From assembly GCA_014729505.1 (NCBI GenBank), contig WJJS01000015.1, positions 1 through 35,299 on the forward strand: a stretch of DNA of 35,299 nucleotides, in the 5' to 3' direction. The position numbers and the translations under genes are program-made. Below the pieces are notes generated by a model that saw only the letters and a list, made by a program, of their open reading frames with translations, was not told the DNA's origin and searched no databases. This DNA is from Candidatus Woesearchaeota archaeon (GTDB lineage: Archaea > Nanobdellota > Nanobdellia > Woesearchaeales > ARS49). Of the stretch, positions 1 to 16,170 are shown piece by piece; positions within the stretch are counted from its first letter, which is position 1; each line of letters opens with the position of its first letter.

Positions 1-795
1 GTAGATCTCGGTGTGCCAGCAAAACTATTGCTCTCAAAGAATTTACTTGGAAAAAAATTCGGACAAAACATACTCAATATCTCTGTGATCAACATTCTTC
101 TAGGGCTGCTCGGGCTTACCGCACTTACGATCTTTTTTAGCGAATCAACAGCAGACATCGTCCTACGCCTTGCAGGCATACTAGGTTTTGGTGTCATGTT
201 TGTGCTCCTCTTCTGGTCAGTCAACAAACTCTCGCGCTTCATCATTATGCTTGAGATAGAAGAAGCACAATTTAGCATCGCATTTGTTCTCGTACTTTTC
301 CTGGCATACCTCAGCGACGTTTTAGGATTCTCAACAGTTCTTGGCGCATTCCTTGCAGGAATTATCATCGGAAAAATGGGTTTTGCAGGAACAAGAGATT
401 TCAGCGAAAAACTCAGCGCAGTAGGCTCAGGTATCTTCATACCGCTCTTTTTTGCATGGTTTGGACTCGAACTCAACTTGCAAGCGATCATCGCAAATAT
501 CGGCATGGCAGTTGCACTCATGGGAGTATCAGTCATTATAAAGTTCCTGGTCTGCTACCTAGGCGCGCGTTATTTTGGACTGCCAAAACCAGGAGTCACA
601 GCAAGTTCCATGCTAAGTCTTGATGTCGAAAGTTTAGTCATACTCCTGCTCGCCGTGAAAATAGGAATATTTGCGACGGGAAGCGTAAGCGCAACATACC
701 CATTAGACATTTTTGCACCAGCAGTACTCTTTACTACCATACTCGTCACCATACTACTCAATTTTTTTGTCAAAGTGGAGCATGCCTATGAATAA
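1..795 (+). CDS. CPA2/Kef-type cation:proton antiporter-like membrane protein, 5'-partial
   Basis: The reading frame is open at the left edge, so the N-terminal half lies outside the window. The visible 264 residues are almost all hydrophobic helices, about seven or eight membrane segments. Family hallmarks are the helix rich in S/A/F with the GAFLAG motif (around residues 110-125) and the stretch before it reading FSIAFVLVLFLAYLSDVLG. CPA2 proteins exchange Na+ or K+ for protons across the membrane. The segment that should carry the ion-binding acidic pair (usually VIDDVLGL) reads VINILLGL here, so transport chemistry may differ. No C-terminal TrkA-N/TrkA-C domain is present. The stop overlaps the next gene by 8 nt, suggesting co-transcription with the DUF4139 operon. 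Membership in the superfamily is fairly sure; the substrate is unknown. Confidence 0.75.
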   Translation, partial: VDLGVPAKLLLSKNLLGKKFGQNILNISVINILLGLLGLTALTIFFSESTADIVLRLAGILGFGVMFVLLFWSVNKLSRFIIMLEIEEAQFSIAFVLVLFLAYLSDVLGFSTVLGAFLAGIIIGKMGFAGTRDFSEKLSAVGSGIFIPLFFAWFGLELNLQAIIANIGMAVALMGVSVIIKFLVCYLGARYFGLPKPGVTASSMLSLDVESLVILLLAVKIGIFATGSVSATYPLDIFAPAVLFTTILVTILLNFFVKVEHAYE

Positions 796-1399
796 ACCCG
801 TTATCTTCCATCGCTACAAGGGAAAAGAACAGATGAATATTATCAGCTACAGTATCGTCTACAAGGATATTTTCTCACTGGACGATTTTTTAGCACTACT
901 TCACGGATGGCTCGTAGAAAACGAGTACGCTTCAGGAGACGACTACGAATTTCGGGAGGACTTCTATCTACAACGAGAAAGTCCGCGCACAGGAAAGCAA
1001 ATACAAATCAGATGGAGAGTACACAAAGTACCCTCAGACACCAAAAAAACAAAACTCTACCGCTATGATTTTGACATTGACATCGATGTGCGCGGCATGC
1101 AACAAGTAGAATTCATGCACGAAGGAAAAAAAGCAACAGCAGACAAAGGGGAACTCGAAATACAAGTAACAGGAAACCTTGTCATCGATTACGAAGAAGC
1201 ATGGAAAAACCATCCATGGCTCAAAAGATACAAGAAATTTATTATCCACACCTGGCTGAAAAGTCAGACAAAAGAACAAAAAGGTGAACTCGATAAAGAA
1301 GGCAAACGATTACAAGACTTTATCAAAGAACACCTAAAAATGAAAGATTACGGTCCGGGACAACTAAAATATTACAATCCCACAAGACCGCCGAGGTGA
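788..1399 (+). CDS. Uncharacterised protein, paralog A of a three-member family around a DUF4139 gene
   Basis: The protein is 203 aa from the ATG at 788, soluble, charged, with no signal peptide. I chose 788 over the ATG at 782 because GGAG at about 776-780 sits at a normal distance only from 788. It shares its pattern with the proteins at 3330-3809 and 3809-4312: an N-terminal 'I/V-F-x-(h)-x-x-(h)-(h)-x-x-(h)-W-(h)' helix, a long alternating beta section, then a basic helical C-terminus beginning near a W/F-K-R motif. No known family is recognised. It ends inside the Shine-Dalgarno-like GAGGTG of the DUF4139 gene that follows four nt later, so the two are very likely translated from one message. 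Function unknown; context suggests a complex with the DUF4139 protein. Confidence 0.8.
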   Translation: MNKPVIFHRYKGKEQMNIISYSIVYKDIFSLDDFLALLHGWLVENEYASGDDYEFREDFYLQRESPRTGKQIQIRWRVHKVPSDTKKTKLYRYDFDIDIDVRGMQQVEFMHEGKKATADKGELEIQVTGNLVIDYEEAWKNHPWLKRYKKFIIHTWLKSQTKEQKGELDKEGKRLQDFIKEHLKMKDYGPGQLKYYNPTRPPR

Positions 1400-1403
1400 A
1401 ACC

Positions 1404-3329
1404 ATGACATTACAACGAGTAACACTCTATAAGCACGGCGTAGGCTTCTTTGAAAGAAAATTTAGTATGAGCGGAGAGGGTAAAATCACACTCTTTTTTG
1501 AACCAGAACAAATGAACGACGTATTGAAAAGCGTAAGCGCTGTTGATACCAGTGACGGTTATGTTGCAAACATCAGCTATGACACTGCACGACCACAACC
1601 AAGCAAATTCTCCTTAGAAAACGGAGCAGTACTACAAACACTGATACTACAACTCATCGGCGTAACCGTAAAAGCAAAAATAGGACAAAAAACAATGCAA
1701 GGAGCAATCGTAGGTCTTGAAAACAGACAAACAGCAACTGAACAAACAAGCGTCATGATGCCACACCTCGTCATATCAACAGACCAAAGCGTGCAACAAG
1801 TGCCATTGCAGGACGTAGAACACATCACGATTCAAGACAAACAAATAGCAGAAGAACTCCAACGATACCTTGACGCCTTTCTCTCAAAACAAAAAGAAGG
1901 GAAAAAAGAACTAAGCATACACTGCAAAGGAAAAGGAAAACGAGACATACACGTTAGTTATCTTACAAGCGCACCAGTATGGAAAACAAGTTATCGCGTC
2001 GTTCTCGACAAAAAACCACTACTGCAAGGATGGGGAATGATCGACAACACCACACATGAAGACTGGAAAGAAGTACGTGTCAGTCTCATTGCCGGACAAC
2101 CAATCAGCTTTGTCTACGGACTCTACGCGCCACATTACGCTTCACGACCACATATCGGAGTACAAACTACAGAAGCAATGGCTCCAACAACACTGGAATC
2201 AGCAGAAGAAGAATACGAAGACATGAGCATGGCACCAATGGCAAGCAGCATGGGAGCACCCGCCATGAAAAAAGAAATGGCACGCAGCAAAGTGGCAGCA
2301 CTAAGCAAGCCACAAGCAGCACCAACAAGTGTTAAAACCACATCAATAACACAAGAAGTAGGCGCGCTGTTTGAGTACGAAATAGAAAAACCAGTTAGTG
2401 TACGAAAAAATGAAAGCGCATCATTACCGCTCTTTTCAAAAAACGTCAAAGGAAACAAGGCACTCGTGTATAATGAAAGTACGCGACCTTTGCATCCAAT
2501 GAACACGATAGACATGACAAACTCGACGGGATTAACACTAGAAGGAGGACCGCTCTTTGTCATCGATGAAGGAACATACGTCGGAGAAGCACTGCTTCCT
2601 GCACTTCAAACAGACGAACAACGATTCGTACCGTATGGAGTCGAGTTAGGCGTTGATGTAAAAAAAGAAATCCGCAGTACCACACTACCCATCTACTTCG
2701 TCAAAATAGTCAAAGGAATCATGTACCAATATTACATTTCCATTAGAGAAACACAATACAAAATTAATAATAAGACAAAGCGGGCACACACGCTACACGT
2801 GGAACATCCGCGAGACAGAAGTTACACCGTAGAACAACCAAAAACATTCAAAGAAACAGACAATTTTTTGCGATTCACTGTAGACCTCAAAGCGCAAAAA
2901 CCGGAAACATTTACAGTAAAAGAACAAAAAACAAGTACCAGCACGAGCTATCTATCAGACATAACAGAAAACGATCTGAAATTTTATCTCGAAAAAAAAT
3001 ACATAAGCAAAGCACTCGAGAAACAGATACAAGAAGTAATGAACATGAAACGGACAATAGCAGAATTATCACGCAAAAAACAAGAATTACAAAAGCTCAT
3101 TAACGAACTCAAAACAGACCAGGCACGCATACGAGAAAACATGAAAGCACTAGGCAGATCAAGCCAAGAAGAGCAAGTGAGACAACGATACCTCACAAAA
3201 CTGGCAGAACAAGAAAACGACATAGAAGACAGCACAGAAGCAATAAAAAATAATGAAGAAAAAGTCAAACAATTACAAGAAGATTTGACAAAGAAACTAG
3301 AAAAAATCAATTTCGAAGTACGATTATAA
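1404..3329 (+). CDS. DUF4139 domain-containing protein with C-terminal coiled coil
   Basis: The protein is 641 aa. Residues 1-170 form an N-terminal beta-rich domain starting VTLYKHGVGFFERKF. Residues about 180-240 match the DUF4139/MuiA-like pattern (V-Y-x-T-x-A-P-x-W-x-x-x-Y followed by N-T-x-E-D-W). Residues about 255-315 are a low-complexity linker rich in Met, Ala, Glu and Pro, after which the beta domain resumes with the EYEIEKPVSVRKNES segment. Residues about 530-641 are a long Lys/Glu/Gln-rich coiled coil. There is no signal peptide, unlike many bacterial family members, so it is probably cytoplasmic. The family has no settled biochemical role. GAGGTG lies 5 nt upstream of the ATG. 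It sits between paralog A and paralogs B and C in a gapless operon, so a shared complex is likely. Confident in the family, not in function. Confidence 0.8.
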   Translation: MTLQRVTLYKHGVGFFERKFSMSGEGKITLFFEPEQMNDVLKSVSAVDTSDGYVANISYDTARPQPSKFSLENGAVLQTLILQLIGVTVKAKIGQKTMQGAIVGLENRQTATEQTSVMMPHLVISTDQSVQQVPLQDVEHITIQDKQIAEELQRYLDAFLSKQKEGKKELSIHCKGKGKRDIHVSYLTSAPVWKTSYRVVLDKKPLLQGWGMIDNTTHEDWKEVRVSLIAGQPISFVYGLYAPHYASRPHIGVQTTEAMAPTTLESAEEEYEDMSMAPMASSMGAPAMKKEMARSKVAALSKPQAAPTSVKTTSITQEVGALFEYEIEKPVSVRKNESASLPLFSKNVKGNKALVYNESTRPLHPMNTIDMTNSTGLTLEGGPLFVIDEGTYVGEALLPALQTDEQRFVPYGVELGVDVKKEIRSTTLPIYFVKIVKGIMYQYYISIRETQYKINNKTKRAHTLHVEHPRDRSYTVEQPKTFKETDNFLRFTVDLKAQKPETFTVKEQKTSTSTSYLSDITENDLKFYLEKKYISKALEKQIQEVMNMKRTIAELSRKKQELQKLINELKTDQARIRENMKALGRSSQEEQVRQRYLTKLAEQENDIEDSTEAIKNNEEKVKQLQEDLTKKLEKINFEVRL

Positions 3330-3809
3330 ATGCCTGAAAAAATAGATGCCGCAAGCAGTGAAATAAAACACGTAGGAGTTTTTGATTTTGACACCCTGCT
3401 TAGCACTGTGAGCAAATGGATGAAAGGACAACTGTACGGATACCTGGAAAAAAAACACAAATACACTGCTGATGAGAGAGAACTGGAAATCAAGGGCGAC
3501 AAGAAAATAAACGAGTATGTCAAACTCTACCTGGTAGTAGAAGTAGAAGTGTCCGAACTAGAAGATGTCGAAGTAATCATCGATCAAAAAAAAGAAATAA
3601 AGAAGAGAGGAAAAATAAGAATCGGCATAGAAGGAAAAATGGAACTCGACTGGATGAAACGATTCGAAAAAGGATTTTACGGTTCAGTACAAAAATTTTA
3701 TCACGAATACATTATTAAACACCGCATAGGACAATGGAAAGATATGATAGACAAAGACGTTTATGAACTGTCACGGGCAATACGAGGAGCGCTGGAGATG
3801 GAACTCTAA
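3330..3809 (+). CDS. Uncharacterised protein, paralog B of the DUF4139 operon family
   Basis: The protein is 159 aa and starts directly after the stop codon of the DUF4139 gene, with no intergenic base. It is predicted soluble and rich in Lys, Glu and Ile. The N-terminal part, GVFDFDTLLSTVSKWM then YGYLEKKH, aligns with GIFKLAKFVQSIKEWL then YGWIEKDH in the next gene, and the middle sections both hold long beta stretches of alternating charge (KLYLVVEVEVSELEDVEV). The C-terminal part is a helical segment around RFEKGFYGSVQKFYHEYII. No known family is recognised. Its stop overlaps the start of paralog C in a TAATG arrangement. The tight coupling suggests defined stoichiometry, but this is inference. 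Confidence 0.8.
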   Translation: MPEKIDAASSEIKHVGVFDFDTLLSTVSKWMKGQLYGYLEKKHKYTADERELEIKGDKKINEYVKLYLVVEVEVSELEDVEVIIDQKKEIKKRGKIRIGIEGKMELDWMKRFEKGFYGSVQKFYHEYIIKHRIGQWKDMIDKDVYELSRAIRGALEMEL

Positions 3810-4312
3810 TGGCAGAAAAAACAAAAGTTGCAGACGGAGAAACAATCGAGTACGAAGGAATCTTTAAACTCGCAAAATTCGTGCAAAGCATCAAAGAATG
3901 GCTCGAAGAAAAAGGATACGGATGGATAGAAAAAGACCATCTGGAAACCATAGGTCCAGAAGGAAAATACATAGAAGCAAAAATTGAAGGAGAAAAAAAA
4001 GCAGCAGATTACGCAAAACAAATACTCAAAATAAAACTCACATTTGAAAACATCAAAGACAAGATAGTAGATTTTCACGGCGAAAAATCACGCTACGCCG
4101 TAGGAAAAGCAAAAATCAAAATAGACGCGCATGTCAAAACAGACTTTGAAAAACGATGGAAAGAAGACAAACCCGCATTTTACCTACTACGACTCTTCTT
4201 TGAAAAACACATCTACTCGCCATACAGCAAACGACTAGAAGACACTGTGCGAGAAGATGTGAACGCGCTCAAAGACCATATCTCCAATTATCTCAACCTC
4301 TACAAATACTAG
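3809..4312 (+). CDS. Uncharacterised protein, paralog C of the DUF4139 operon family
   Basis: The protein is 167 aa, cytoplasmic by appearance, and the last gene of the operon; its ATG shares a base with the preceding stop codon. The order is the same as in paralogs A and B: an N-terminal amphipathic helix (GIFKLAKFVQSIKEWL), a YGWIEKDH element, a beta section with alternating charge (KQILKIKLTFENIKDKIVDF), and a helical C-terminus starting at a FEKRWKED-like motif and ending YLNLYKY. Divergence among the three copies is large, so the duplications are old and the copies probably do distinct jobs. No catalytic motif is visible. A scaffold or binding role is as plausible as an enzymatic one. 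Confidence 0.8.
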   Translation: MAEKTKVADGETIEYEGIFKLAKFVQSIKEWLEEKGYGWIEKDHLETIGPEGKYIEAKIEGEKKAADYAKQILKIKLTFENIKDKIVDFHGEKSRYAVGKAKIKIDAHVKTDFEKRWKEDKPAFYLLRLFFEKHIYSPYSKRLEDTVREDVNALKDHISNYLNLYKY

Positions 4313-4370
4313 GGCAATCTTTAAAAATAAGTCTCCTGTTGTGAGTGCTGAAGCCTTGTGGCACAGATAG

Positions 4371-4556
4371 CAAATTTTTAAGAAAAATTTGTTAAAAACA
4401 CGGTCGGTACACTTTGTTTACCGCTCAGCACACCTTTTATGCCTCCGTAGTATAGGCGGCGAAGTTTTAAGAAAACTTCGATCAAAACACGGAGAGTGAC
4501 GGGACTTGTAGTCCCGTACGCGCCACACACCCTTTTATGCCTCCGTAGCATAGCGG
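4371..4556 (+). repeat. Two tandem copies of a structured ~90-nt element ending in the 5' part of tRNA-Thr
   Basis: Unit 1 is 4371-4459 and unit 2 is 4460-4556. Each begins with a 9-bp hairpin closed by loop AAG (4371-4391 and 4460-4480), continues with an A-rich AAAACACGG box, then a second hairpin (4405-4423; 4499-4517), then CCTTTTATGCCTCCGTAG, which runs into tRNA-Thr sequence. Hairpin arms differ between copies at two paired positions (A-T to G-C, and T-A to G-C) yet stay fully complementary. Hairpin II sequences are quite different but both fold. In unit 1 the tRNA-like part stops after about 19 nt; in unit 2 it is the genuine tRNA gene. No canonical box A lies 26 nt before the tRNA. 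Confidence 0.75.
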
Positions 4557-4625
4557 CTAATGCGCCGGTCTTGTAGCACAACGCAAGCAAACCGGAGATC
4601 CCGAGTTCAATTCTCGGCGGAGGCT
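4539..4625 (+). tRNA. tRNA-Thr (anticodon TGT) with a 14-nt intron
   Basis: The acceptor stem GCCTCCG (4539-4545) pairs with CGGAGGC (4618-4624), followed by discriminator T, usual for archaeal tRNA-Thr. The D arm uses GCAT/ATGC and the T arm is CCGAG-TTCAATT-CTCGG. The anticodon stem CCGGT (4565-4569) pairs with ACCGG (4591-4595). The loop reads CT-TGT-A, then a 14-nt intron at 4576-4589, then A4590, which puts the intron at the canonical 37/38 site. Around it, CTTG (4570-4573) pairs with CAAG (4584-4587), flanked by 3-nt bulges TAG and CAA, so cleavage after TA and after CA fits a bulge-helix-bulge substrate. CCA is not encoded. Confidence 0.92.
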
Positions 4626-4629
4626 TACT

Positions 4630-4773
4630 GGACAAACTCGTTACACTCGTTTGCCCAGCGATCCGCTATTTGATTGTATTTTACGTACAATAGACAAACT
4701 CGTTGCACTCGTTTGCCAACTACTTGATATTTAATTCTGTTTTAGTGGACAAATCTCGCTTTGCTCGTTAGCT
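4630..4773 (+). repeat. Tandem repeat of ~60 nt with a 26-nt core, about 2.5 copies
   Basis: The cores start at 4630, 4692 and 4748. The first two read GACAAACTCGTT, then a purine plus CACTCGTTTGCC; the third is more diverged. Each core contains the direct repeat CTCGTT twice and has short complementary ends (CAAAC/GTTTG). The following ~30 nt are AT-rich and only loosely similar. The stretch lies between tRNA-Thr and a damaged LamG gene and contains no credible ORF. Confidence 0.65.
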
Positions 4774-4858
4774 CAGGGAACAATGGTTACTTGTTTTTTA
4801 TACAAACTCTAAATCGACGAGCGAGCATAAGTATTTGAAATTTTATTGTCAACGTGTG

Positions 4859-4866
4859 TTTTAAAT
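4859..4866 (+). promoter_or_regulatory. Box A (TATA) of the LamG remnant
   Basis: TTTTAAAT is centred 27 nt upstream of the ATG at 4890. This spacing recurs across the window and implies a leaderless transcript. It argues for a start at 4890 rather than at the ATG at 4875. Confidence 0.55.
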
Positions 4867-4889
4867 AGTAGATTATGTTCTGGAAAATA

Positions 4890-5225
4890 ATGAAAAGAGG
4901 AATCATAGTTTTGTTAATATTTTTACTGCTTTTTGGAGTTACTGTTTCTGCCAAACGCGCACTTAATTGCAGCATTGATGATTGCACTGGGTTAACGGGA
5001 TTATGGCACTTGGATGACGGTAATGAAGCCAATGTTTTTTTGGATATGGCAGGAAACCTAAACGGATCTTGCACGACCTGTCCTAATTGGGTCGAAGAAG
5101 GTAAAACTGGAGGCGCTTATGACTTTGTCATAGCGGTAAACAAGTCATCATACAATTCTATACAGATAGCCAGACCAATCACTCTTGCACGAAATAAGGG
5201 CCTTTCAGAAGGAGGAAATCTTTGA
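4890..5225 (+). CDS. Truncated secreted LamG-domain protein (remnant)
   Basis: From the ATG at 4890 the product starts with a clear signal peptide (MKRGIIVLLIFLLLFGVTVSA) followed by the front of a LamG/concanavalin-like domain: GLWHLDDG, LDMAGNLNGSC and GKTGGAYDF are the first strands of that fold. Homology stops after AYDF, where the usual 'DGxDDYV' strand should follow; the remaining ~30 residues look random and overlap an opposite-strand ORF. Full family members run to several hundred residues, so this is the 5' remnant of a larger surface protein, cut at about position 5125-5130. The box A and signal peptide are intact, so a short secreted peptide might still be made. Confidence 0.55.
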   Translation: MKRGIIVLLIFLLLFGVTVSAKRALNCSIDDCTGLTGLWHLDDGNEANVFLDMAGNLNGSCTTCPNWVEEGKTGGAYDFVIAVNKSSYNSIQIARPITLARNKGLSEGGNL

Positions 5226-5362
5226 GCAAATTCATAGACCTTGTCAAGAAACTGTTCTGAGAACTTGACAAGATCGTCATTAATCACTATGGGCGGACCA
5301 TCAGTCTTACTCGTGCGACACTTGAGTGTATCCCAAACTTCTTTGACGATTTTTTTAATCAC
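5117..5362 (-). CDS. Possible four-helix-bundle (Avd-like) remnant
   Basis: This is an 81-aa reading frame with GTG as the only usable start (5360-5362) and no convincing promoter. The segment FPPSERPLFRARVIGLA resembles the F-P-x-x-E-R-x-x-L-x-x-R helix junction of 23S rRNA intervening-sequence/Avd four-helix-bundle proteins. It ends at about the point where the LamG homology on the other strand ends, so both may be fragments joined by a rearrangement. Avd proteins accompany diversity-generating retroelements, but no reverse transcriptase or template repeat is visible here. Assignment is tentative; it may also be a chance frame. Confidence 0.3.
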   Translation of the reverse strand: MIKKIVKEVWDTLKCRTSKTDGPPIVINDDLVKFSEQFLDKVYEFAQRFPPSERPLFRARVIGLAICIELYDDLFTAMTKS

Positions 5363-5465
5363 TTCCTAGGGGATCTTCATTTGCTTTATCATGAAGAATT
5401 CTCTTATATGATTTGCGGTACTGGCGAGCAGAAACACTAATTAATCTGTGCCGCGTAACAAGGGC

Positions 5466-6455
5466 ATGACGAGGCGATATTATGGATTGAGGTACTTCTC
5501 TTGGTTTTTGGCTTGGTATCACTGTTCTATTAAACCAAGATTCTTTACTGTGTTGTCATATATCAGGACATCGCCGATGCGTAGAACGGAAGTTCCTAAA
5601 GAGTTAGTGGTGGTCACAAGTACTTTTTGTAACGCAAAGTGCGTATTCTGCTCATATCGGAAACTGTCTTATGAAAAAAAGATAATGCCTCGTTCTGTTT
5701 TTGAGAAAGGAGCTGATGATTTCAAACGCGCAGGCGGATCTCGACTTATGTTTTCTGCTACACTAGGAGAAGTAACATTGGATCCGGAGTTATTCGACAA
5801 GATACGCTACGCAAAACACCTGGGCTTTCGCATAGGTATGTACACGAACGGTTTTCTTCTCGGTTCATTATGCAAAGAGTTAGTTAGTCTCGTCGATGAT
5901 CTCGTCATTAGTATTGGTGATATCAACCCCTCCTTAGAAGCTCAAATCTTTGGAATTCCAGAAGTGCTTGCACGAAAAAAAATACAATCGCTATTTGATC
6001 TTGTCCGGTACAATGCAAAAGAAGGCAAACCATTGCGCATCACTCTTGCGATGCGATCACAACGATCCTTTGCAACACTTTACAAAGATTCTCGTTTTTG
6101 CGCATTGCTTGATGAAGTCAACATTGATTTCCTTTTTGGATACGATAATTGGAGTGGGACGATCACTAGTGACGACTTACTGGGTGTGATGAAACTTCGA
6201 CAACCCATTCGCAAAGGCAATATTCCTTGTCAAGGATTGCGGCGAATAAGTCTTTTACCGAATGGAGATATTCGTTTATGTGCTTGCAAGGTGTTAAAAA
6301 ACGAAAGTGATGAGTTAGTTGTTGGAAATATTTGTCACGACGATTTTGCTAAAATTTTTTCCAGTAAAGCAATCAATTCACTTCACAAAAAGTTTGAACA
6401 ACAAGAGTATCCAGAAGTGTGCCAGCAGTGCACGCGTTATTCGCCCCTCAAATGA
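5466..6455 (+). CDS. Radical SAM protein with SPASM-like C-terminus
   Basis: The product is 329 aa from the ATG at 5466. A cluster motif C-x3-C-x2-C (CNAKCVFC, residues 55-62) would bind the [4Fe-4S] that cleaves S-adenosylmethionine. A TIM-barrel-like region follows with GEVTLDPELFDKI and the MYTNGFLL strand typical of the family. The C-terminus has CQGLRRISLLPNGDIRLCAC and a final CQQC, a Cys-rich SPASM-type auxiliary cluster region. The ~50-residue basic N-terminal extension is common in relatives found in polysaccharide loci. A weak box A (CTAATTAAT, 5437-5445) lies 25 nt before this ATG; the GTG at 5448 is an alternative start. The substrate is not predictable from sequence; the adjoining glycosyltransferases suggest a sugar or lipid carrier. 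Confidence 0.85.
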   Translation: MTRRYYGLRYFSWFLAWYHCSIKPRFFTVLSYIRTSPMRRTEVPKELVVVTSTFCNAKCVFCSYRKLSYEKKIMPRSVFEKGADDFKRAGGSRLMFSATLGEVTLDPELFDKIRYAKHLGFRIGMYTNGFLLGSLCKELVSLVDDLVISIGDINPSLEAQIFGIPEVLARKKIQSLFDLVRYNAKEGKPLRITLAMRSQRSFATLYKDSRFCALLDEVNIDFLFGYDNWSGTITSDDLLGVMKLRQPIRKGNIPCQGLRRISLLPNGDIRLCACKVLKNESDELVVGNICHDDFAKIFSSKAINSLHKKFEQQEYPEVCQQCTRYSPLK

Positions 6456-6471
6456 ATCACCGATCAGGTAC

Positions 6472-6500
6472 GATTCTCAAAAATTGCGAGAGTCATCCTT
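6472..6500 (+). terminator. Hairpin plus T-rich tract after the radical SAM gene
   Basis: GATTCTC (6472-6478) pairs with GAGAGTC (6488-6494), 7 bp with one G-T pair, and is followed by CCTTTTA. It may end the radical SAM transcript, though the T tract overlaps the box A of the next gene and archaeal termination needs mainly the T tract. Confidence 0.3.
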
Positions 6501-6508
6501 TTATATTA
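6501..6508 (+). promoter_or_regulatory. Box A of the GtrB/DPM-like gene
   Basis: TTATATTA, within a longer AT run, lies about 24 nt upstream of the ATG at 6527, giving a leaderless or nearly leaderless message. Confidence 0.5.
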
Positions 6509-6526
6509 TAAATAATCAGCATCCAT

Positions 6527-7432
6527 ATGAAATATTCTGTTGTCATTCCTGTTCACAACGAATCAGCAACGATTGTTCCATTAATTTCTGAAATAAAATC
6601 AGTGATGCAACCACTAGGATCATACGAGATACTTGTTATTGATGATGGAAGTACTGATGCTACTTTACCTCTTGTTCAATCCTTATCAGTAAAAACATTC
6701 TCTTTTACCAAAAACTATGGACAAAGTGCTGCACTCCAATGCGGTTTTGATCACGCAAAAGGAGACATCATCATCACACTTGACGGTGACGGACAAAACG
6801 ATCCGCGCGATATTCCGCGCATGCTTTCTGCTCTCGACCTATTTGATGCGGTCGCAGGATGGAGAGCACAACGAAGAGACGGCGTGAGCAAAGTCATAGC
6901 ATCCCGACTCATGTGGTTCATGCGTTACATAGTATTGCAGGACCCCTTGCGCGATGCAGGATGCGGACTCAAAGTGATGAAACAACACTGCCTGCAGAAT
7001 ATTGAGATCTACGGAGAATTACATCGGTTCATTTTGGAACTCGTCGCCATGAAAGGCTATCGCGTATCAGAAGTACCGGTGCGTCACCGGCCACGACGAG
7101 GGGGGAAAACACACTATTCAAACCTAGATCGAGCAATAAAAGGCAATCTCGATCTTTTCATGGTATGGTTTTGGAAGAAATATGCAGGCCGACCTTTGCA
7201 TATCCTGGGATTTGGAGGTTTTCTCTTTTTTGTTGTCGGATCTCTAATCGGCGTATACGCCGTGTACCTCAAGTTTATCCTCGACAAAGATCTATCAAAT
7301 TCTGTTTTTCCTTTGTTAAGCGTTTTTCTTCTTCTAGCAGGCATACAGTTTGTCACTGCAGGATTGTTGTTTGACATCGTCATTAGAAACTATTATCGAG
7401 ACAAACCACGATACGAACTTAGAACACTTTAA
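6527..7432 (+). CDS. GtrB/ArnC/DPM-like polyprenyl-phosphate glycosyltransferase (GT2)
   Basis: The protein is 301 aa. It opens with the GT2 nucleotide-binding motif SVVIPVHNE and IDDGSTD. The metal-binding DxD is DGDG at residues 86-89, followed by QNDP as in dolichol/undecaprenyl-phosphate sugar synthases. RHRPRRGGKTHY is the membrane-facing acceptor region. Two C-terminal membrane helices (about 220-245 and 255-285) give the GtrB/ArnC topology. These enzymes transfer a sugar from a nucleotide donor to a polyprenyl phosphate on the cytoplasmic face. That product is the kind of donor used by GT39-type proteins, two of which are encoded nearby. The sugar is unknown. The gene converges with the flippase gene, overlapping it by 14 nt. 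Confidence 0.88.
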   Translation: MKYSVVIPVHNESATIVPLISEIKSVMQPLGSYEILVIDDGSTDATLPLVQSLSVKTFSFTKNYGQSAALQCGFDHAKGDIIITLDGDGQNDPRDIPRMLSALDLFDAVAGWRAQRRDGVSKVIASRLMWFMRYIVLQDPLRDAGCGLKVMKQHCLQNIEIYGELHRFILELVAMKGYRVSEVPVRHRPRRGGKTHYSNLDRAIKGNLDLFMVWFWKKYAGRPLHILGFGGFLFFVVGSLIGVYAVYLKFILDKDLSNSVFPLLSVFLLLAGIQFVTAGLLFDIVIRNYYRDKPRYELRTL

Positions 7433-8648
7433 CTTTCACGTACGCAATATTAAGACCCGCCCATAACGCAATAGCGATGAGTGTTGCCATCGCAGCACCA
7501 AAGGCACCAAAGAAAAGAATACCCACATAATTGAGAACGACGTTTGTACATGCTGCGATTCCATTAAAGAGTAGAATGATAGACAAGTCTCCGCGAATAA
7601 AAGCAAGCCTACTACTCAAATGCCCAACTGCGTAGATCAAAGGAGAAAACGCCAGGACCTGCATGAGAGGCACAATCGACGAAGATGAATAGAGAAAAGG
7701 AATGATGAGTGGGGCTAGGATCAACAACAATACGACAATTATCGCGTTGATAGTCAATAACCTCCACAAGGTAGAGAGATAAAACGATCGGACCTTCCGA
7801 TGGTTGGCAAACAATGGAGCAGCACCAGCAATAAATGGAATTGATAGCGCAAGCGCTTTTTTAGTTAGCGAAGCAGCAATACTGTAATTACCCACTTCAA
7901 CACTGCCCAACATCGAAGAGATCATTAGAATGTCAATCTTTTCGACGAGAATCCAAAATAAGTACGCTAAAGTAATAATGAAAAGGGCCTTAAGAGCAGA
8001 AGATGAAAGCGAAGAAACCTCTTTATTAGATCGGGGAAGTTTGATACACAAGATAGCAAGAAGAAACACAATACCCGCCCCGTAACTTGCGATATATGAG
8101 ATGAGAAGCCCAGATAATGAGATCCAATTGTATGCATAAAGTGCCGTTAACAACAACAGTTCAAGCACATAAAACAATATGATGGCGATGACTGGATAGA
8201 CTTGTCGATGAAGAGGCTCGAAAAGGGAGATAAAAAAGAAAAAGAAATTTGACACCAACACAAAAACAATCACAAGCACAATATGGTCAAGCAATACTGC
8301 AACGGGGAAGAAAACAAGCCAAGCACAAAACAGTACTGCAGTAATCGCGGCAAACAACAAGCGTGCGCGAAGAGAAGAAAAAATATGCACTCGACTCGTA
8401 GAAGAAAACTTATGAGAACTCAAGGTTTGATACAAATCAAGACTGACTTTACCGGAAAAAAAGACACCGAGCAGAGCAGCATAGGCAAAAACAGTCTGCA
8501 ATTGCCCGTACAATTCAATGCCTGCAATGTTTGGAATCAACACAACAAAAAGCAGACCAAAAACCGCAACAATCAACTGGTAAGCCATAGCATACGTTGT
8601 CTCTTTACGGACTTTGGTCTTTGAAAAATATGAAGGCAATTTCCACAT
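7419..8648 (-). CDS. Wzx/MATE-type oligosaccharide flippase
   Basis: The protein is 409 aa with about twelve hydrophobic segments spread over the whole length. It starts MWKLPSYFSKTKVRKE, a short basic N-terminus typical of Wzx-like polysaccharide exporters, followed by a first helix and a GIELYGQLQTVFAY loop. Late helices with GNYSIAASLTKKALALSIPF match the family's second half. Such proteins move lipid-linked oligosaccharides across the cytoplasmic membrane. Position among glycosyltransferases supports the call. A box A lies 27 nt upstream of the ATG and there is no ribosome binding site. The next gene upstream is divergent. Confidence 0.85.
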   Translation of the reverse strand: MWKLPSYFSKTKVRKETTYAMAYQLIVAVFGLLFVVLIPNIAGIELYGQLQTVFAYAALLGVFFSGKVSLDLYQTLSSHKFSSTSRVHIFSSLRARLLFAAITAVLFCAWLVFFPVAVLLDHIVLVIVFVLVSNFFFFFISLFEPLHRQVYPVIAIILFYVLELLLLTALYAYNWISLSGLLISYIASYGAGIVFLLAILCIKLPRSNKEVSSLSSSALKALFIITLAYLFWILVEKIDILMISSMLGSVEVGNYSIAASLTKKALALSIPFIAGAAPLFANHRKVRSFYLSTLWRLLTINAIIVVLLLILAPLIIPFLYSSSSIVPLMQVLAFSPLIYAVGHLSSRLAFIRGDLSIILLFNGIAACTNVVLNYVGILFFGAFGAAMATLIAIALWAGLNIAYVKVKVF

Positions 8649-8670
8649 ACAACCCTTAGCAAGTGATGAT

Positions 8671-8678
8671 TATTTATG
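8671..8678 (-). promoter_or_regulatory. Box A of the flippase gene
   Basis: On the minus strand this reads CATAAATA, centred about 27 nt before the flippase ATG (8648). Confidence 0.55.
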
Positions 8679-8693
8679 CGTTTCGCCAGTAGC

Positions 8694-8701
8694 TTTTTAT
8701 T
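8694..8701 (+). promoter_or_regulatory. Box A of the first GT39 gene
   Basis: TTTTTATT is centred 26 nt before the ATG at 8723; it is divergent from the flippase promoter, with about 20 nt between the two boxes. Confidence 0.55.
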
Positions 8702-8722
8702 CGTCACAATAGTACCAAGAAC

Positions 8723-10486
8723 ATGAAACGCGCGATCAGCATTGCAGGAGGGATACTCAGCATAACCTTCATGATCTGCTGGTTGGCAGAGACAACAGGA
8801 TTCTTCTTAGCACATCGCACACTGCACCTCGGATTGTTTGCAGTTCTAAGTGCGGTTCTATTAGTCTTTATGAAAAGACCCTGGAACTTGTATCTTTTCT
8901 TTGCGAACATAACAGTGTTTTCAATAGGCGCACAGTACGCAAAGGACCCGCTACTGTTATTGCTTTGCTGTTTGCCACTCATTGGTCTAGGCGCAACATT
9001 TTCTCAACAACAGCTTTCAACAACGCACCACCACAAAGTGATCTTCCTGCTCGTAGTTGTACTCCTCGTAGCAGGACTCTCCATTCGTTTGACAGGACTC
9101 ACCTCATTAGAACCGTACACGGACGAGTACAGCCATCTCGTCAGCGCACAAGCACTCCGCCAGTACGAAGACACCCGAGTCACATTAGATGGAGAACTCA
9201 GTGAACGATACACTCGGGCGTATGGTCTCACATGGATTATCGCACAACTCTTTGCACTGTTTGGAGAATCCCTTTTTATAGCTCGACTAGTTGGAGTGAT
9301 TGCAAGTACTCTAGTAGCAATACTTTTATTCTCTCTTGGAACAAGAGTGCATTATCTCGTCGGACTTATTAGCGCATACCTTTGGCTTTTTTGTCCATGG
9401 GTCATAGCCGTCTCACAAACCGTTAGAGAATACGCACTGTTCCCACTCTGCTATCTACTCATAATTGCAGGACTCTTTTGGTGTACAGAAAAGAAGAACT
9501 GGTGGGGAGTCGCAGGTATAGTAACTCTTTCCCTTTTTTACGCGTTAGTCTTGGACCCTGCATCCACGTTCGTCCAAATCATACCGATGATTGTCACATA
9601 CTTCATCTATTACTTGACACAACGACTCCTTGCGGGATTGACAAGACATTGGATACTACTACTCGTCGCAACAATTCTTCCGCTCATGATAGTATTATGG
9701 CAAGTGCCGTGGTATATCTCAACGAGTCCAGAACTCAATTCGTTTTGGATCCGACAGTTCTTCTCAGAAGCGATTTGGTCGTATCCCATTGCTACTTTTC
9801 TTATTTTTGTGTTTTTCTTGTGCGGATCATTACGCGTTCTTTGGGACCTGCTGTATCGTCGACTTCATATTGTGAGCTATTGTCTTGTTACATTTCTCTT
9901 TTTTCTCGGGTTTTTCACCTTTCATTTTGATCGATATCTGCGACCACGATACTCTTTTGTTATGCTACTCTTTTATCTGCCAGTTGTAGCGTATGGTATG
10001 TACGCCTTAATCGCGGAGGTACAGCATCTTGCTAAGAAAGTGCCAGCAACACTCTTACTTGCAGCAGTAGGATTGATGGTGTTCTCGCCAGCGCCCGGAT
10101 ACGGTGCCGCAACAATGAGTGAGCATGGATACGTGCCAATTACCGACGAATATCACGACTCTTACAACGCAATACATGAGCTCTACGGACAAAACTTTTA
10201 CAACTCCACAGTGCTTTGTTCGCATTGTTATCTCTTATTGTGGAACCGCGACGCTCCCTTGCGTAACAATACCCTCTACGTCTATTCCTACACTAATCCT
10301 GAACGAATCAACAGAGCGACAAAACTTATACGAGAAAGTAGTACCGGGTGGGCAATTCTTGATTGGCGACGGCATCGACACTGGGCATCGGGACTTCCTT
10401 TGTACGACTTTATCGAAGGAAACAAAAGCGTGCAGCTGGTTGACTCGACAAATGGTTTTGATATATTCTATTGGGAACCTATCTGA
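8723..10486 (+). CDS. GT39 (PMT/ArnT-like) integral membrane glycosyltransferase
   Basis: The protein is 587 aa. Three or four N-terminal helices precede a fifth ending in LSIRLTGLTSLEPYTDEYSH. The D-E pair at residues 134-135 matches the catalytic acidic motif in the first large external loop of GT39/ArnT/PMT proteins. The N-terminal ~100 residues, with three extra helices, are an addition relative to a standard GT39. A further run of helices extends to about residue 460, followed by a ~120-residue external C-terminal domain. Family members use polyprenyl-phosphate sugars to glycosylate proteins or lipids on the outer face. The GtrB-like enzyme two genes upstream could supply the donor. The gene converges with the GT4 gene at 10468, overlapping 19 nt. 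Confidence 0.82.
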   Translation: MKRAISIAGGILSITFMICWLAETTGFFLAHRTLHLGLFAVLSAVLLVFMKRPWNLYLFFANITVFSIGAQYAKDPLLLLLCCLPLIGLGATFSQQQLSTTHHHKVIFLLVVVLLVAGLSIRLTGLTSLEPYTDEYSHLVSAQALRQYEDTRVTLDGELSERYTRAYGLTWIIAQLFALFGESLFIARLVGVIASTLVAILLFSLGTRVHYLVGLISAYLWLFCPWVIAVSQTVREYALFPLCYLLIIAGLFWCTEKKNWWGVAGIVTLSLFYALVLDPASTFVQIIPMIVTYFIYYLTQRLLAGLTRHWILLLVATILPLMIVLWQVPWYISTSPELNSFWIRQFFSEAIWSYPIATFLIFVFFLCGSLRVLWDLLYRRLHIVSYCLVTFLFFLGFFTFHFDRYLRPRYSFVMLLFYLPVVAYGMYALIAEVQHLAKKVPATLLLAAVGLMVFSPAPGYGAATMSEHGYVPITDEYHDSYNAIHELYGQNFYNSTVLCSHCYLLLWNRDAPLRNNTLYVYSYTNPERINRATKLIRESSTGWAILDWRRHRHWASGLPLYDFIEGNKSVQLVDSTNGFDIFYWEPI

Positions 10487-11526
10487 CGCAGTAAAGAATA
10501 CACCGTTTTTGCGTGGACAGACCAAGAAAAACGTTTAATGTTATCAAATCCTTTTTTGCACAATCGTTTCTTCACGGCTCGGTCTTGCACTGTTATCATA
10601 TGTTCAGATAACTTCTTTACATCAAATGGAGCAAAATAAAGCGCTGCCTCGCCCGCCACCTCAGGCAAAGACGTTTCAGTCGTGGTAATGACAGGACAAC
10701 CATTAGCTTGAGATTCCAAGACGGGAAGGCCAAAACCCTCGTAGAGTGATGGGTACACAAAAGCAAGAGCTAATTTATACAAGGCGACAAGGTCCTTACG
10801 TGGAACATGACCGAGAAGATGTACTTGAGGATTCTTATTAATCATTTTAACAAGAGAAGAACTCTGTTTTTGCACTCCTCCCGTAAGGACAAGATATGCT
10901 TCTGGCAAGTGCTCAAGAGCTTTGAGAAGCGTACGAAGATTTTTTCTCGGTGTTATTGCGCCAGCATAGAGAAAGAACGAGTTGGGAAGCTCGTACCTCT
11001 TTTTGATTTTTAGCAACTCTTTTTGAGAATACCTTTTTTTTTGTGGCGGACCTTCCTGAGCAATAGTTATTTTTTCTTTTGGAACTTTTAGCAACCCATG
11101 CACTTCTTGACAAGTACTTTTTGAAACCGTAATGAAATGCGTTGCTTGACGGCAAGTGAGAGGCAAAAGGAAAGTGTTACGAATACGATTCTCGAGAGAA
11201 AAACTCTCAACACGCCGTCTACAAGAGATGTCATGGATTACAACAGCAGAGGGTACTGTTGTGAACAAAGGCTTCGTTTGCATAGTACACAACAAGACAT
11301 CCAGATGCAGAGAATTAATGAGAGGGCCTGCAGTAAGTTCGCATATGAGCTGATTATCAAAAGGAAGCTTTACTTCAGTAACTGACGGTTTCGAGGTCTT
11401 ATTGTTACGAAACAAAAACAATTGATCTTCTTTGCACAACGGAATCAAATGAGAAAGAAGATTCTCATGATACGTGGCAACACCTCCTTCAACACTGCCA
11501 TCCGTAAGAAAGATACCTATTCGCAT
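10468..11526 (-). CDS. GT4-family glycosyltransferase
   Basis: The product is 352 aa from the ATG at 11526, preceded by a strong Shine-Dalgarno AAGGAGG inside the upstream gene. It begins MRIGIFLTDGSVEGGVATYHENL, the glycine-rich N-terminus of GT-B fold family 4 enzymes. The second half has FLYAGAITPRKNLRTLL (donor phosphate loop), HLLGHVPRKDLVALY, and the nucleotide-sugar motif PSLYEGFGLPVLESQANGCP, where E-x7-E is the retaining-transferase signature. It shares a 10-nt overlap with the preceding GT4 gene, so the pair is translationally coupled. The sugar is unknown. Confidence 0.9.
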   Translation of the reverse strand: MRIGIFLTDGSVEGGVATYHENLLSHLIPLCKEDQLFLFRNNKTSKPSVTEVKLPFDNQLICELTAGPLINSLHLDVLLCTMQTKPLFTTVPSAVVIHDISCRRRVESFSLENRIRNTFLLPLTCRQATHFITVSKSTCQEVHGLLKVPKEKITIAQEGPPQKKRYSQKELLKIKKRYELPNSFFLYAGAITPRKNLRTLLKALEHLPEAYLVLTGGVQKQSSSLVKMINKNPQVHLLGHVPRKDLVALYKLALAFVYPSLYEGFGLPVLESQANGCPVITTTETSLPEVAGEAALYFAPFDVKKLSEHMITVQDRAVKKRLCKKGFDNIKRFSWSVHAKTVYSLLRQIGSQ

Positions 11527-12605
11527 GAGACCTCCTTGTAGACCTTGTAGTATTGTTCTGCGACAGATTTCCACGACAGCGAGCAGGCAATACGTCGAGA
11601 CTCCCTGCCAAGCTGTAAACGAAGAAGAGGAGATTTGATAAGACTTGCAATAGAAGCACGCAAATCGACAACAGAGTCCGCAATGAAACGGTGATCACTC
11701 ACCAACCCGGTTTTTGAAGCAGAAGACACAATCACAGGAAGACCGCAAGCCATCGCTTCAAGAAGCGCGTTACTCATGCCCTCATTTTTAGAAGGCAACA
11801 CAAACACGTCATGATCTTGATACACTTGTGACATAAGATTCCAAGGAATACGTCCCAAAAAAGCAACAGAGACATTCTTTGATGCCGCCCTCGCTTTTAG
11901 AGACGCCTCAAGAGGGCCAGAGCCAACAATCGACACTTCACAAGACAAACCCCTACACGCGTCGATTAACACGACGATGTTCTTTCGAGTAATAAGTCGG
12001 GAGACACAAAGCACTTTCAACAACCCCTTTTTTAATCTTTTCCTGGGCGTGAACAAGACAGTATCAACACCGTTTGGAATCACATCAATATGTCTTGAAG
12101 AAGTCTTTTGTGCAAGCAAACGCAAGTGCTCAGAATTTGCGATGACTCGATGAGCTTTAGCCCACAAATACTTACTCAATGATTGCAGACCCATCATTTC
12201 AATGACTTTAAACCTTTCGTTAAATCCTGGAACGTCAGAACCCCGCAACGAAATGATTATGGGCAAACCCAAACCCAGAGTAGCAGGTCCAGAAGGAAAC
12301 GCTCCAAACACATGACAGCAGTGAAATTTTCGATGGGAACATAGTTTTTTTGCAGTATGACGTGCTTTAGGAAAGAAACTCAACAAGTTCTGGTAACTTT
12401 GAAAATGAGGGTTTTTACCAGCACTACAAAGAGCATGTAGAGTGATATTCGGACTCACTTGAACCGCGCGGCGCTGAGACATTGTAGAAGCAATAATATC
12501 CATCTCAACATTAAAAGATTGGAACTCTTTGAGAAGGGAGGCTAAAGCGCGACCAGTACCTCCGCCAAGAGGAGGATATTCATAACAGAGCAAAAGCACA
12601 CGCAT
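11517..12605 (-). CDS. GT4-family glycosyltransferase
   Basis: The product is 362 aa. I place the start at the ATG at 12605 because box A CTTATAAC is centred 26 nt upstream and the protein then begins exactly at the fold: MRVLLLCYEYPPLGGGTGRA. The PPxGGG glycine loop, the VLCVSRLITRKNIVVLI strand and the C-terminal PSKNEGMSNALLEAMACGLP box (E-x7-E) define a GT-B family 4 enzyme. It is the first gene of a two-gene unit with the next GT4. Such pairs commonly add successive sugars to a lipid-linked precursor; specificity cannot be read from sequence. Confidence 0.9.
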   Translation of the reverse strand: MRVLLLCYEYPPLGGGTGRALASLLKEFQSFNVEMDIIASTMSQRRAVQVSPNITLHALCSAGKNPHFQSYQNLLSFFPKARHTAKKLCSHRKFHCCHVFGAFPSGPATLGLGLPIIISLRGSDVPGFNERFKVIEMMGLQSLSKYLWAKAHRVIANSEHLRLLAQKTSSRHIDVIPNGVDTVLFTPRKRLKKGLLKVLCVSRLITRKNIVVLIDACRGLSCEVSIVGSGPLEASLKARAASKNVSVAFLGRIPWNLMSQVYQDHDVFVLPSKNEGMSNALLEAMACGLPVIVSSASKTGLVSDHRFIADSVVDLRASIASLIKSPLLRLQLGRESRRIACSLSWKSVAEQYYKVYKEVSCE

Positions 12606-12626
12606 GAACCTGAGCTCTGGCAAACG

Positions 12627-12634
12627 CTTATAAC
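12627..12634 (-). promoter_or_regulatory. Box A of the GT4 pair
   Basis: On the minus strand GTTATAAG is centred about 26 nt before the ATG at 12605; it separates the GT4 unit from the GT2 unit upstream. Confidence 0.5.
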
Positions 12635-12671
12635 ATTTTATGTCGAAAAGACTGCCTATTTGAAAATATAG

Positions 12672-13622
12672 TTAGGGTCGCAAGGTCAAAAACACGTCCC
12701 TTTTTATTCGTCGTGAATGTTGCACTTGACGTCGACGAGATAATGCTGTAGGAAGAGAATTCAGTATCCGACGTGCTGCGCTACCTAAACCCCACAAAGG
12801 ACCAAGATTTCTTCGCTCAAGAGATTGTTTGATTGCTTTAAAACAGGAAAACACGGTAAACACAGGAATACTACATAAGAGATTATGCCATCGATAATTC
12901 TTTAGCAGAGTGTAGGCCATCGCATAAGTGGTTGCAGCAAACCTACGAGAATACATCTCATTATTTTTTCGAATTCCTTTGCCAATATGGGTTTGCAGGT
13001 TCTTGGCAAAAAGACGGACTTCATGCCCTTTCATCCACAGTTTAATGCCAAGATCTGTGTCATCACCTCCAAAGACCAGATGCTCGTCGTACCCACCAAC
13101 CCGTTGCCATAACGACTTTTTGAGAAATAGAGCGCCCCCACACGGAAATGCAACCGTGCGACCGTGCATTTGTTTTACGTCCTGAATGGTCGCGAGCGGG
13201 GACTCAGTAACGCCATACAGTCCGAGGAAACCACCGTAGTACTTTGTCTTCTTAGCTCCAAGGTCTACTAACGCAAGGCTAATGCACAAAGGATCAGACC
13301 ATTGTTGATGGGTATCAAGAAGATCGGTGAGAAGATTTCTATTGTTAACAACGATATCGTTATCAAGCAAGAGAATGAAGGGACCTCTTGCAACTGCAAC
13401 GCCTTCATTGCATGCAGTGTTTTTTGACTTGAGTCGAGAACTTCCTAGCACACGAACTTTTTGCTTACGTAAAAGCGAAACACTCTCGTCGCAAGAGTGA
13501 GCATCAACGACAATCAACTCTTTGGCTGGCAGCTTTTTGAGAAAAGGAATTGTTTTTCGTAAACGGCAAGCCCCATTATAGTTCGCGACGACAATACTGA
13601 CATCACTTGGCAGGTATTTCAT
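12672..13622 (-). CDS. GT2-family glycosyltransferase (WbbL/rhamnosyltransferase-like), second of a paralogous pair
   Basis: The product is 316 aa from the ATG at 13622; the ATG at 13634 abuts GGGAGG with no spacing, so 13622 is the better start. SIVVANYNGACRLRKTI is the GT2 N-terminus, LLLDNDIVV carries the DxD, and GGYDEHLVFGGDDTDLGIKLW holds the late acidic motif. The expected D-N/D-G-S-x-D triad is changed to DAHSCDESV. A C-terminal helix follows and the tail reads HSRRIKRDVFL, matching ASRTVREDVFL in its neighbour. The gene starts inside the upstream paralog. It probably transfers a sugar in assembly of the same surface glycan. Confidence 0.88.
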   Translation of the reverse strand: MKYLPSDVSIVVANYNGACRLRKTIPFLKKLPAKELIVVDAHSCDESVSLLRKQKVRVLGSSRLKSKNTACNEGVAVARGPFILLLDNDIVVNNRNLLTDLLDTHQQWSDPLCISLALVDLGAKKTKYYGGFLGLYGVTESPLATIQDVKQMHGRTVAFPCGGALFLKKSLWQRVGGYDEHLVFGGDDTDLGIKLWMKGHEVRLFAKNLQTHIGKGIRKNNEMYSRRFAATTYAMAYTLLKNYRWHNLLCSIPVFTVFSCFKAIKQSLERRNLGPLWGLGSAARRILNSLPTALSRRRQVQHSRRIKRDVFLTLRP

Positions 13623-14547
13623 TGAGAAAAACATCCTCCCTTACCGTTCTAGAAGCTTGAACGGTTTTTCGCATGCGAAGAGTTGATGGAAAAGAACAAA
13701 GAAATACGTGAGCCGATTGTACAACGCCAAAAAGGGGAGTTGGAGTTTGATGATGCAAGGAAACTCGCAGAGCTTTGACAAGGATCCACGAAAGAGCCGC
13801 AGGAAACCACAAGAGAAGATTGGGCCACGAATAATTCTTCCACATCATGCGAGAAAAGCCCGCCAAGTAAAACTTTTGACGAAACTGCAAACGAGAATCA
13901 GAAATCTCAACACCATGATGGATTAGCTTCACATTTGTTGAAGCAAAACAAGGAACTTGTTGCAAAGCTGCTCTTGCACTTAGATCGTAATCGTCAAGAT
14001 GAATGGGAAATATATCATCATAACCGCCGAGATTGCAGAACAATTGACGCTTGAAAAAAACAGCTCCACCATGAAATCCGTTCACTCGAAGAATCCCTGT
14101 TCTCTCAAGATCATCAGGATGAAGATGAGATTGGAGTCGTGTAAATTTTAGACCAAGACAACGCAAGGTATTCTTATCGATGTCTTGAACTAAGGGAGAA
14201 AGAAAACCAGTATCCCCCAACTCCCTATAGTCGAAAAGCAATTGTTGTACGGCATTGTTTGGGCATTCAATATCGTTGTCAAGGAGAAAGACATAATCTC
14301 CTTTGGCTTGACGGACAAGCTCATTTTTAGCACATCCGTACCCCCTATTTTTTCGAAAATAAATTGTCTTGACGCGCAAGTGCTGCAAATATTCCACGCT
14401 ACCATCTGAAGAACCATTATCTGCTACGAGAAGTTGCACGTTAGGGTACTCTTGATGCAATAGTGAAGGAAGGCAACGACGCAAGCGACGCACTCCATTG
14501 TGGTTCAACACTCCAATAGTGATAAGCGGTGGTTTCACGACGTGCAT
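13603..14547 (-). CDS. GT2-family glycosyltransferase (WbbL/rhamnosyltransferase-like), first of a paralogous pair
   Basis: The product is 314 aa. ITIGVLNHNGVRRLRRCL begins a GT2 fold, VADNGSSDGSVEYL is the canonical second motif, VFLLDNDIE is the DxD, and GGYDDIFPIHLDDYDLSARA is the late acidic motif. A C-terminal hydrophobic helix (LLLWFPAALSWILVKAL) anchors it at the membrane, as in its downstream paralog. The promoter box is a palindromic TTTAAA shared with a small gene on the opposite strand. It overlaps the following paralog by 20 nt. Confidence 0.9.
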   Translation of the reverse strand: MHVVKPPLITIGVLNHNGVRRLRRCLPSLLHQEYPNVQLLVADNGSSDGSVEYLQHLRVKTIYFRKNRGYGCAKNELVRQAKGDYVFLLDNDIECPNNAVQQLLFDYRELGDTGFLSPLVQDIDKNTLRCLGLKFTRLQSHLHPDDLERTGILRVNGFHGGAVFFKRQLFCNLGGYDDIFPIHLDDYDLSARAALQQVPCFASTNVKLIHHGVEISDSRLQFRQKFYLAGFSRMMWKNYSWPNLLLWFPAALSWILVKALRVSLHHQTPTPLFGVVQSAHVFLCSFPSTLRMRKTVQASRTVREDVFLNEIPAK

Positions 14548-14564
14548 ACCAACTTAGAAAAAGG

Positions 14565-14572
14565 TATTTAAA
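14565..14572. promoter_or_regulatory. Shared divergent box A (palindromic TTTAAA)
   Basis: TATTTAAA lies about 22 nt from the minus-strand GT2 start (14547) and 28 nt from the plus-strand start at 14597. No other box is near either start, so one palindrome seems to serve both directions. Confidence 0.55.
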
Positions 14573-14596
14573 CGTTGTTGTATGCCAACATAGAGA

Positions 14597-16142: not shown

Positions 16143-16164
16143 AAGGGCAGAAAGTGAGGAATCG

Positions 16165-16170
16165 TATATA
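16165..16170 (-). promoter_or_regulatory. Box A of the second GT39 gene
   Basis: TATATA is centred about 26 nt before the minus-strand ATG at 16142. Confidence 0.55.

What the first reader, a model, noticed from the sequence alone, without database searches (positions are those of the whole stretch)
788..4312. Gapless operon of a DUF4139 protein with three diverged paralogs of an unrecognised family
The sequence shows four genes with spacings of +4, 0 and -1 nt; the small proteins flanking the DUF4139 gene share a helix-beta-helix pattern (GVFDFDTLLSTVSKWM against GIFKLAKFVQSIKEWL, YGYLEKKH against YGWIEKDH). DUF4139 proteins have no settled function and are usually secreted in bacteria; this one lacks a signal and has a C-terminal coiled coil. 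Three retained paralogs around a scaffold-like protein suggest a hetero-oligomeric cytoplasmic assembly.
Basis: partly seen in the sequence, partly recalled or inferred. Interest (0 to 1): 0.65.

Follow-up and report, generated by a model that had tools for sequence, protein, structure and literature searches.

The report
Core paralog trio of Woesearchaeales archaea
The three small proteins beside the DUF4139 gene belong to an unnamed, ancient family that almost every examined genome of this group of tiny archaea carries, usually as a fixed gene pair or trio, while the DUF4139 gene between them is a rare insertion found there in this genome only.

Summary
Four genes lie head to tail with spacings of +4, 0 and -1 nt. 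The three small proteins are true paralogs (C-D BLASTP 1e-12; profile comparisons 99.6-99.9%; two AlphaFold models with one topology). The paralogs are not a set gathered around DUF4139. They form an unnamed family found in 358 of 371 sampled genomes of this archaeal phylum (240 of 243 good-quality ones). Its A, C and D subfamilies are each monophyletic across the order, whose named members are Candidatus Woesearchaeota. C and D are neighbours in 57 of 57 surveyed loci that hold both, often behind A or a CBS-domain/zinc-ribbon gene. DUF4139 occurs in 8 of 276 genomes and lies between A and C only here; it belongs to a bacterial family that shares its coiled coil, but it lacks their signal peptide. 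No Pfam, NCBIfam, PHROGs or PDB sequence family matches the small proteins, and no solved fold reaches TM 0.5 (nearest: START/SRPBCC, Cyt/volvatoxin). Best reading: subunits of a cytosolic, probably non-enzymatic hetero-oligomer with a housekeeping role, perhaps tuned by an adenine-nucleotide-sensing CBS partner. Heteromer, CBS link and role are inferred.

The parts
788..1399 (+). A: third paralog (203 aa), P0001
   Evidence: A-D BLASTP 8e-5; profile comparisons with D and C 99.6% and 99.9%; homologs in 55 of 60 genomes; AF2 pLDDT 86, pTM 0.80; A clade monophyletic, SH-aLRT 96
1404..3329 (+). B: DUF4139/MuiA-family protein (641 aa) without a signal peptide, inserted between A and C in this genome only
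   Evidence: PF13598 3.3e-6; TIGR02231 1.4e-12; 99%-coverage homologs in alphaproteobacterial plasmids; 8 of 276 genomes of the order
3330..3809 (+). C: paralog (159 aa), P0003, near-constant neighbour of D
   Evidence: BLASTP with D 1e-12; profile of the C subfamily found in 358 of 371 genomes; C clade SH-aLRT 99; adjacent to D in 57 of 57 loci
3809..4312 (+). D: paralog (167 aa), P0004, the most conserved of the three
   Evidence: 253 of 288 genomes of the order by single-sequence search; AF2 pLDDT 85.6, pTM 0.76; D clade SH-aLRT 99
13..795 (+). C-terminal part of a Na+/H+ exchanger, cut by the contig start, overlapping the start of A by 8 nt; possibly co-transcribed, not conserved in the neighbourhoods of relatives
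   Evidence: PF00999 3.8e-22; not seen among the neighbours

Best explanation
A, C and D are subunits made by an ancient triplication of a small cytosolic protein that nearly all of these archaea keep. C and D most likely form an obligate heteromer, with A as a third, more loosely linked subunit or alternative partner. Reduced genomes of sister orders that keep a single copy would make a homo-oligomer of the same protein. The fold is an antiparallel sheet of five strands with one short and one long helix. It has no conserved Cys/His catalytic set, so it probably binds or scaffolds rather than catalyses. The gene often directly upstream encodes a CBS-pair/zinc-ribbon protein, which would sense adenine nucleotides and tune the complex. 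The neighbourhoods (archaeal DnaG, TruD, aRF1, Obg-like GTPase, RNase P p30, adenylate kinase) point to a housekeeping role near RNA metabolism or translation. The DUF4139 protein is a later addition to the operon in this lineage. Shown: homology, distribution, monophyly, gene order, predicted topology. Inferred: heteromer, CBS regulation, role.
For: Paralogy. Near-universality: 358 of 371 genomes, 240 of 243 of good quality, including small single-copy genomes. A, C and D each one clade across the order (SH-aLRT 96, 99, 99). C-D adjacent in 57 of 57 loci holding both; A directly upstream in 13; CBS-zinc ribbon directly upstream in 16. The same CBS gene stands next to the single-copy gene in sister orders. 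DnaG lies downstream, same strand, in 9 of 29 sister-order loci, from eight families. Same predicted topology for A and D. No signal or membrane segment (max 19-residue hydropathy below 1.3 for A, C and D).
Against: No complex was modelled or measured. Adjacency of paralogs can be left over from tandem duplication. One genome, G043, has C and D on different contigs. A is often elsewhere in the genome. The flanking genes are varied housekeeping genes, and synteny in small genomes can persist without function. Some sampled genomes lack A, or show one copy even in the order.
Confidence: 0.45

Rival explanations
1. The small proteins are highly diverged START/SRPBCC-like (helix-grip) proteins that bind a hydrophobic ligand such as an archaeal lipid, for uptake or transfer in these host-dependent cells.
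For: The beta-alpha-beta4-alpha order resembles a shortened helix-grip fold. The best Foldseek hit for D is a COXG/SRPBCC protein (2ns9, E 5e-4, probability 0.94), and START, Ups1 and PYL structures recur. DPANN dependence on host lipids is documented for Ca. Nanohaloarchaeum (PMC11035636, abstract).
Against: TM-scores are about 0.14-0.31 for such hits, well under 0.5. Only five strands instead of about seven. The strands alternate hydrophobic and charged residues as in a simple sheet covered on one side. No gene of lipid metabolism is among the conserved neighbours.
Confidence: 0.13
2. The four genes make one dedicated assembly with DUF4139 as scaffold.
For: In this genome the four genes are gapless and on one strand, so B is probably co-transcribed with A, C and D. 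B has a C-terminal coiled coil and no signal peptide.
Against: DUF4139 is absent from nearly all genomes that have A, C and D (8 of 276), is absent from all other listed genomes of the same family, and is not seen beside them elsewhere. Its coiled coil is shared with bacterial homologs that carry signal-like N-termini.
Confidence: 0.08
3. The paralogs are independent homo-oligomers with separate roles that merely stayed together after tandem duplication.
For: Extra tandem C-C and D-D copies occur (L257, L260, L267, L276), A is often unlinked, and sister-order genomes manage with one copy.
Against: C and D remain contiguous with gaps of about 0-200 nt across the order in 57 of 57 loci, although the flanking genes change.
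Confidence: 0.27
4. The small proteins are membrane-active proteins of the Cyt/volvatoxin fold.
For: The A model hits volvatoxin A2 and Cyt1Aa with Foldseek probability 0.96-1.0.
Against: TM at most 0.42, rmsd 7-8 A, 6-12% identity; no signal peptide; near-universal retention in minimal genomes is not how secreted cytolysins behave.
Confidence: 0.03

Closest known systems
SRPBCC/START (helix-grip) superfamily, e.g. APE2225 COXG (PDB 2ns9)
   Same: Antiparallel sheet with an N-terminal short helix and a long C-terminal helix; top or recurrent Foldseek hit
   Different: Five strands, TM about 0.3 or less, no sequence similarity, no Pfam match
Cyt delta-endotoxin / volvatoxin A2 fold (PDB 1pp0, 3ron)
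   Same: Highest Foldseek probability for the A model
   Different: TM 0.42 or less, rmsd above 7 A; no signal peptide, near-universal in minimal genomes
DUF4139 / MuiA family (PF13598, TIGR02231)
   Same: B is full length, with 99% coverage to alphaproteobacterial members including the C-terminal coiled coil
   Different: B lacks the signal peptide that the two translated bacterial homologs appear to have
Module 98 families shared by Woesearchaeota and Pacearchaeota (Castelle et al. 2021, PMC8204110)
   Same: 51 protein families widespread in these two lineages, most of unknown function
   Different: Whether this family is one of them could not be checked because supplements were not readable; the section read describes no such paralog trio, pairing or fold

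Membership tests
DUF4139 (PF13598) / MuiA family (TIGR02231), protein B | Score above the curated cut-off | tested here: not met
   27.4 against 31.8 bits; 47.2 against 112.6 bits for TIGR02231
DUF4139 (PF13598) / MuiA family (TIGR02231), protein B | End-to-end homology with annotated members | tested here: met
   99% coverage, 24% identity, E 1e-38 with a Rhizobium DUF4139 protein
DUF4139 (PF13598) / MuiA family (TIGR02231), protein B | Signal peptide (common in bacterial members, not strictly defining) | tested here: not met
   B starts MTLQRVTLYKHGVGFF; the two bacterial homologs translated start with signal-like peptides; judged by eye, no predictor was run
SRPBCC/START superfamily, proteins A, C, D | Global fold match, TM above 0.5 | tested here: not met
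   Best SRPBCC hit TM 0.29-0.31
SRPBCC/START superfamily, proteins A, C, D | Sequence profile match | tested here: not met
   No SRPBCC/START Pfam match in any of 30 D and 30 A members at E 0.1
SRPBCC/START superfamily, proteins A, C, D | Internal hydrophobic ligand cavity | not testable with these tools
Known defence or viral protein family | Match in PADLOC-DB or PHROGs, or presence in viral contigs | tested here: not met
   one marginal PADLOC hit, D to PprPIWI, E 1.2e-3 over 85 residues, taken as chance
Single paralogous family of A, C and D | Significant end-to-end homology and common predicted topology | tested here: met
   for homology; for the topology of D and A; C was not modelled

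The most novel reading that the evidence does not exclude
A previously unnamed core protein family of the Woesearchaeales/Pacearchaeales branch, with a fold not matched by any solved structure, forms a lineage-specific essential hetero-oligomeric complex under adenine-nucleotide (CBS) control, with no counterpart in other life.
Probability: 0.2. Interest if true: 0.75.

Novelty: new member of a known kind. Interest (0 to 1): 0.5.

Why it matters
Lineage-restricted core proteins of unknown function are thought to set DPANN archaea apart from other archaea. This family is kept by about 99% of good-quality genomes of a very large symbiotic group, even those near 0.5 Mb, yet it has no Pfam or NCBIfam model here and no solved relative. 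It gives a concrete, soluble, small target with a fixed partner gene for working out what these cells cannot live without.

Tried and rejected
Pfam, NCBIfam, PADLOC, PHROGs and PDB sequence searches of the small proteins: only weak, inconsistent hits. Foldseek against PDB and viral models: nothing with TM above 0.5. Scanning genome contigs with the full D alignment failed for lack of a conserved stretch; a closer subset worked and returned named Woesearchaeota. Viral contigs: no relative. A taxonomic search beyond the phylum was not possible, since 'of' takes only genome handles already held. A fusion of CBS with C was suspected from long open frames (G153, G067, G246), but the genes proved to be separate neighbours. 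An apparent in-frame TAG in the window genome's own CBS-zinc ribbon gene was only its ordinary stop. Inter-protein coevolution was not attempted: too few diverse C-D pairs.

Full report
Observation. The four genes are as described: A 788-1399, B 1404-3329, C 3330-3809 and D 3809-4312, all on the + strand, with +4, 0 and -1 nt between them. The upstream Na+/H+ exchanger ends at 795 inside A, so the unit may be longer, but the contig begins at window base 1.

Are the small proteins paralogs? Yes. C and D align end to end at 26% identity, E 1e-12; A and D at 8e-5; A and C are not significant as single sequences. With 30-member profiles, C-D, A-D and A-C score 99.9%, 99.6% and 99.85% probability over their whole length. 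AlphaFold2 models of D (pLDDT 85.6, pTM 0.76) and A (86.0, 0.80) have the same order of elements, beta-alpha-beta-beta-beta-beta-alpha. C was not modelled. Neither Pfam nor NCBIfam has a family for them, and no PDB sequence matches convincingly.

Distribution. In a sample of the order, D alone finds a match in 253 of 288 genomes, A in 55 of 60 and C in 48 of 60. The C-subfamily profile finds the family in 358 of 371 genomes of the phylum sample, 240 of 243 of those of good quality. Copy number is mostly 3-4 in the window's order and 1 in many small genomes outside it. Named relatives are almost all Candidatus Woesearchaeota. The window's own genome holds exactly three copies, all here. Nothing outside the phylum could be searched, so restriction to this branch is not shown.

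Age. In a 118-sequence tree, the A, C and D rows of the order each form one clade (SH-aLRT 96, 99 and 99), and the window's proteins group with those of its own family. The triplication therefore dates to the root of the order or before and has been inherited vertically. In sister orders, tandem triplets also occur (L235, L238, L244), but their assignment to A, C or D is uncertain.

Gene order. C is directly followed by D in 57 of 57 surveyed loci with both (gap at most 207 nt). A stands directly upstream in 13, and a CBS-pair/zinc-ribbon gene in 16. One genome (G043) has C and D on different contigs. The CBS gene also stands beside the family gene in 7 sister-order loci, and archaeal DnaG follows on the same strand in 9 of 29. 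Other neighbours (Obg-like GTPase, adenylate kinase, TruD, aRF1, thermosome, RNase P p30) are housekeeping genes. The window's genome has its CBS-zinc ribbon gene elsewhere. Stand-alone CBS proteins are thought to regulate partner proteins according to adenine nucleotides (PMC3820547).

DUF4139. It occurs in 8 of 276 genomes of the order and in no other listed genome of the same family. In six of the other seven carriers it is on a contig other than the small-protein genes (compare); in G027 the position of D is unknown. In the close relatives A and C abut, with 2 nt between them in L051 and L037 and 3 nt in L036. B is a full-length relative of alphaproteobacterial DUF4139 proteins, including the coiled coil; the two that I translated carry signal-like N-termini that B lacks. 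So B slipped into a junction of a few nucleotides and fits the operon tightly, but it is not part of the conserved unit.

Fold and mechanism. Foldseek gives SRPBCC/START proteins and Cyt/volvatoxin as nearest, all with TM below 0.5. The strands have alternating hydrophobic and charged residues, A, C and D of the window contain no cysteine, and no conserved His/Cys set is seen. I take the proteins to be binding or scaffolding subunits. The fixed C-D pairing over an ancient duplication, with single-copy relatives in reduced genomes, is the pattern seen when a homo-oligomer becomes a hetero-oligomer (as in prefoldin or LSm proteins; general knowledge). Heteromer formation, CBS regulation and the housekeeping role are inferences.

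Novelty. Castelle et al. 2021 reported 51 mostly uncharacterised families shared by Woesearchaeota and Pacearchaeota (module 98). This family fits that description, though identity with one of them could not be checked. I therefore file it as a new, unusually universal member of a known kind, the lineage-specific core family of unknown function. I found no description of its trio, pairing or fold in the papers searched.

Noticed in passing
window 4539-4625: tRNA gene (Rfam 58.4 bits) that ARAGORN could not name; by eye it reads as tRNA-Thr(TGU) with a short anticodon-loop intron. An 18-nt piece (CCTTTTATGCCTCCGTAG) at its start is repeated about 98 nt upstream.
   Followed up: partly
window 4313-23388: The adenylate kinase-TruD pair that follows D at short distance in many relatives lies 19 kb downstream here (23388-24984). 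The first part of the interval holds a radical SAM protein, glycosyltransferase-like genes and a flippase-like gene (read by eye), suggesting an inserted surface-glycan island after the tRNA.
   Followed up: partly
window 4875-5225: Signal peptide followed by what looks like the start of a LamG-like domain, then a stop: probably a truncated gene.
   Followed up: no
L220-L248 (sister-order neighbourhoods): A CBS-pair protein with a C-terminal zinc ribbon and a signal-bearing protein of about 460 aa without a Pfam match (e.g. L229:8521-9897) recur beside the single-copy family gene.
   Followed up: partly
L230, L235, L237, L238, L243, L245, L247, L248, L227: Archaeal DnaG lies downstream of a family copy on the same strand in eight families of sister orders, a deep synteny of unknown meaning.
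   Followed up: partly
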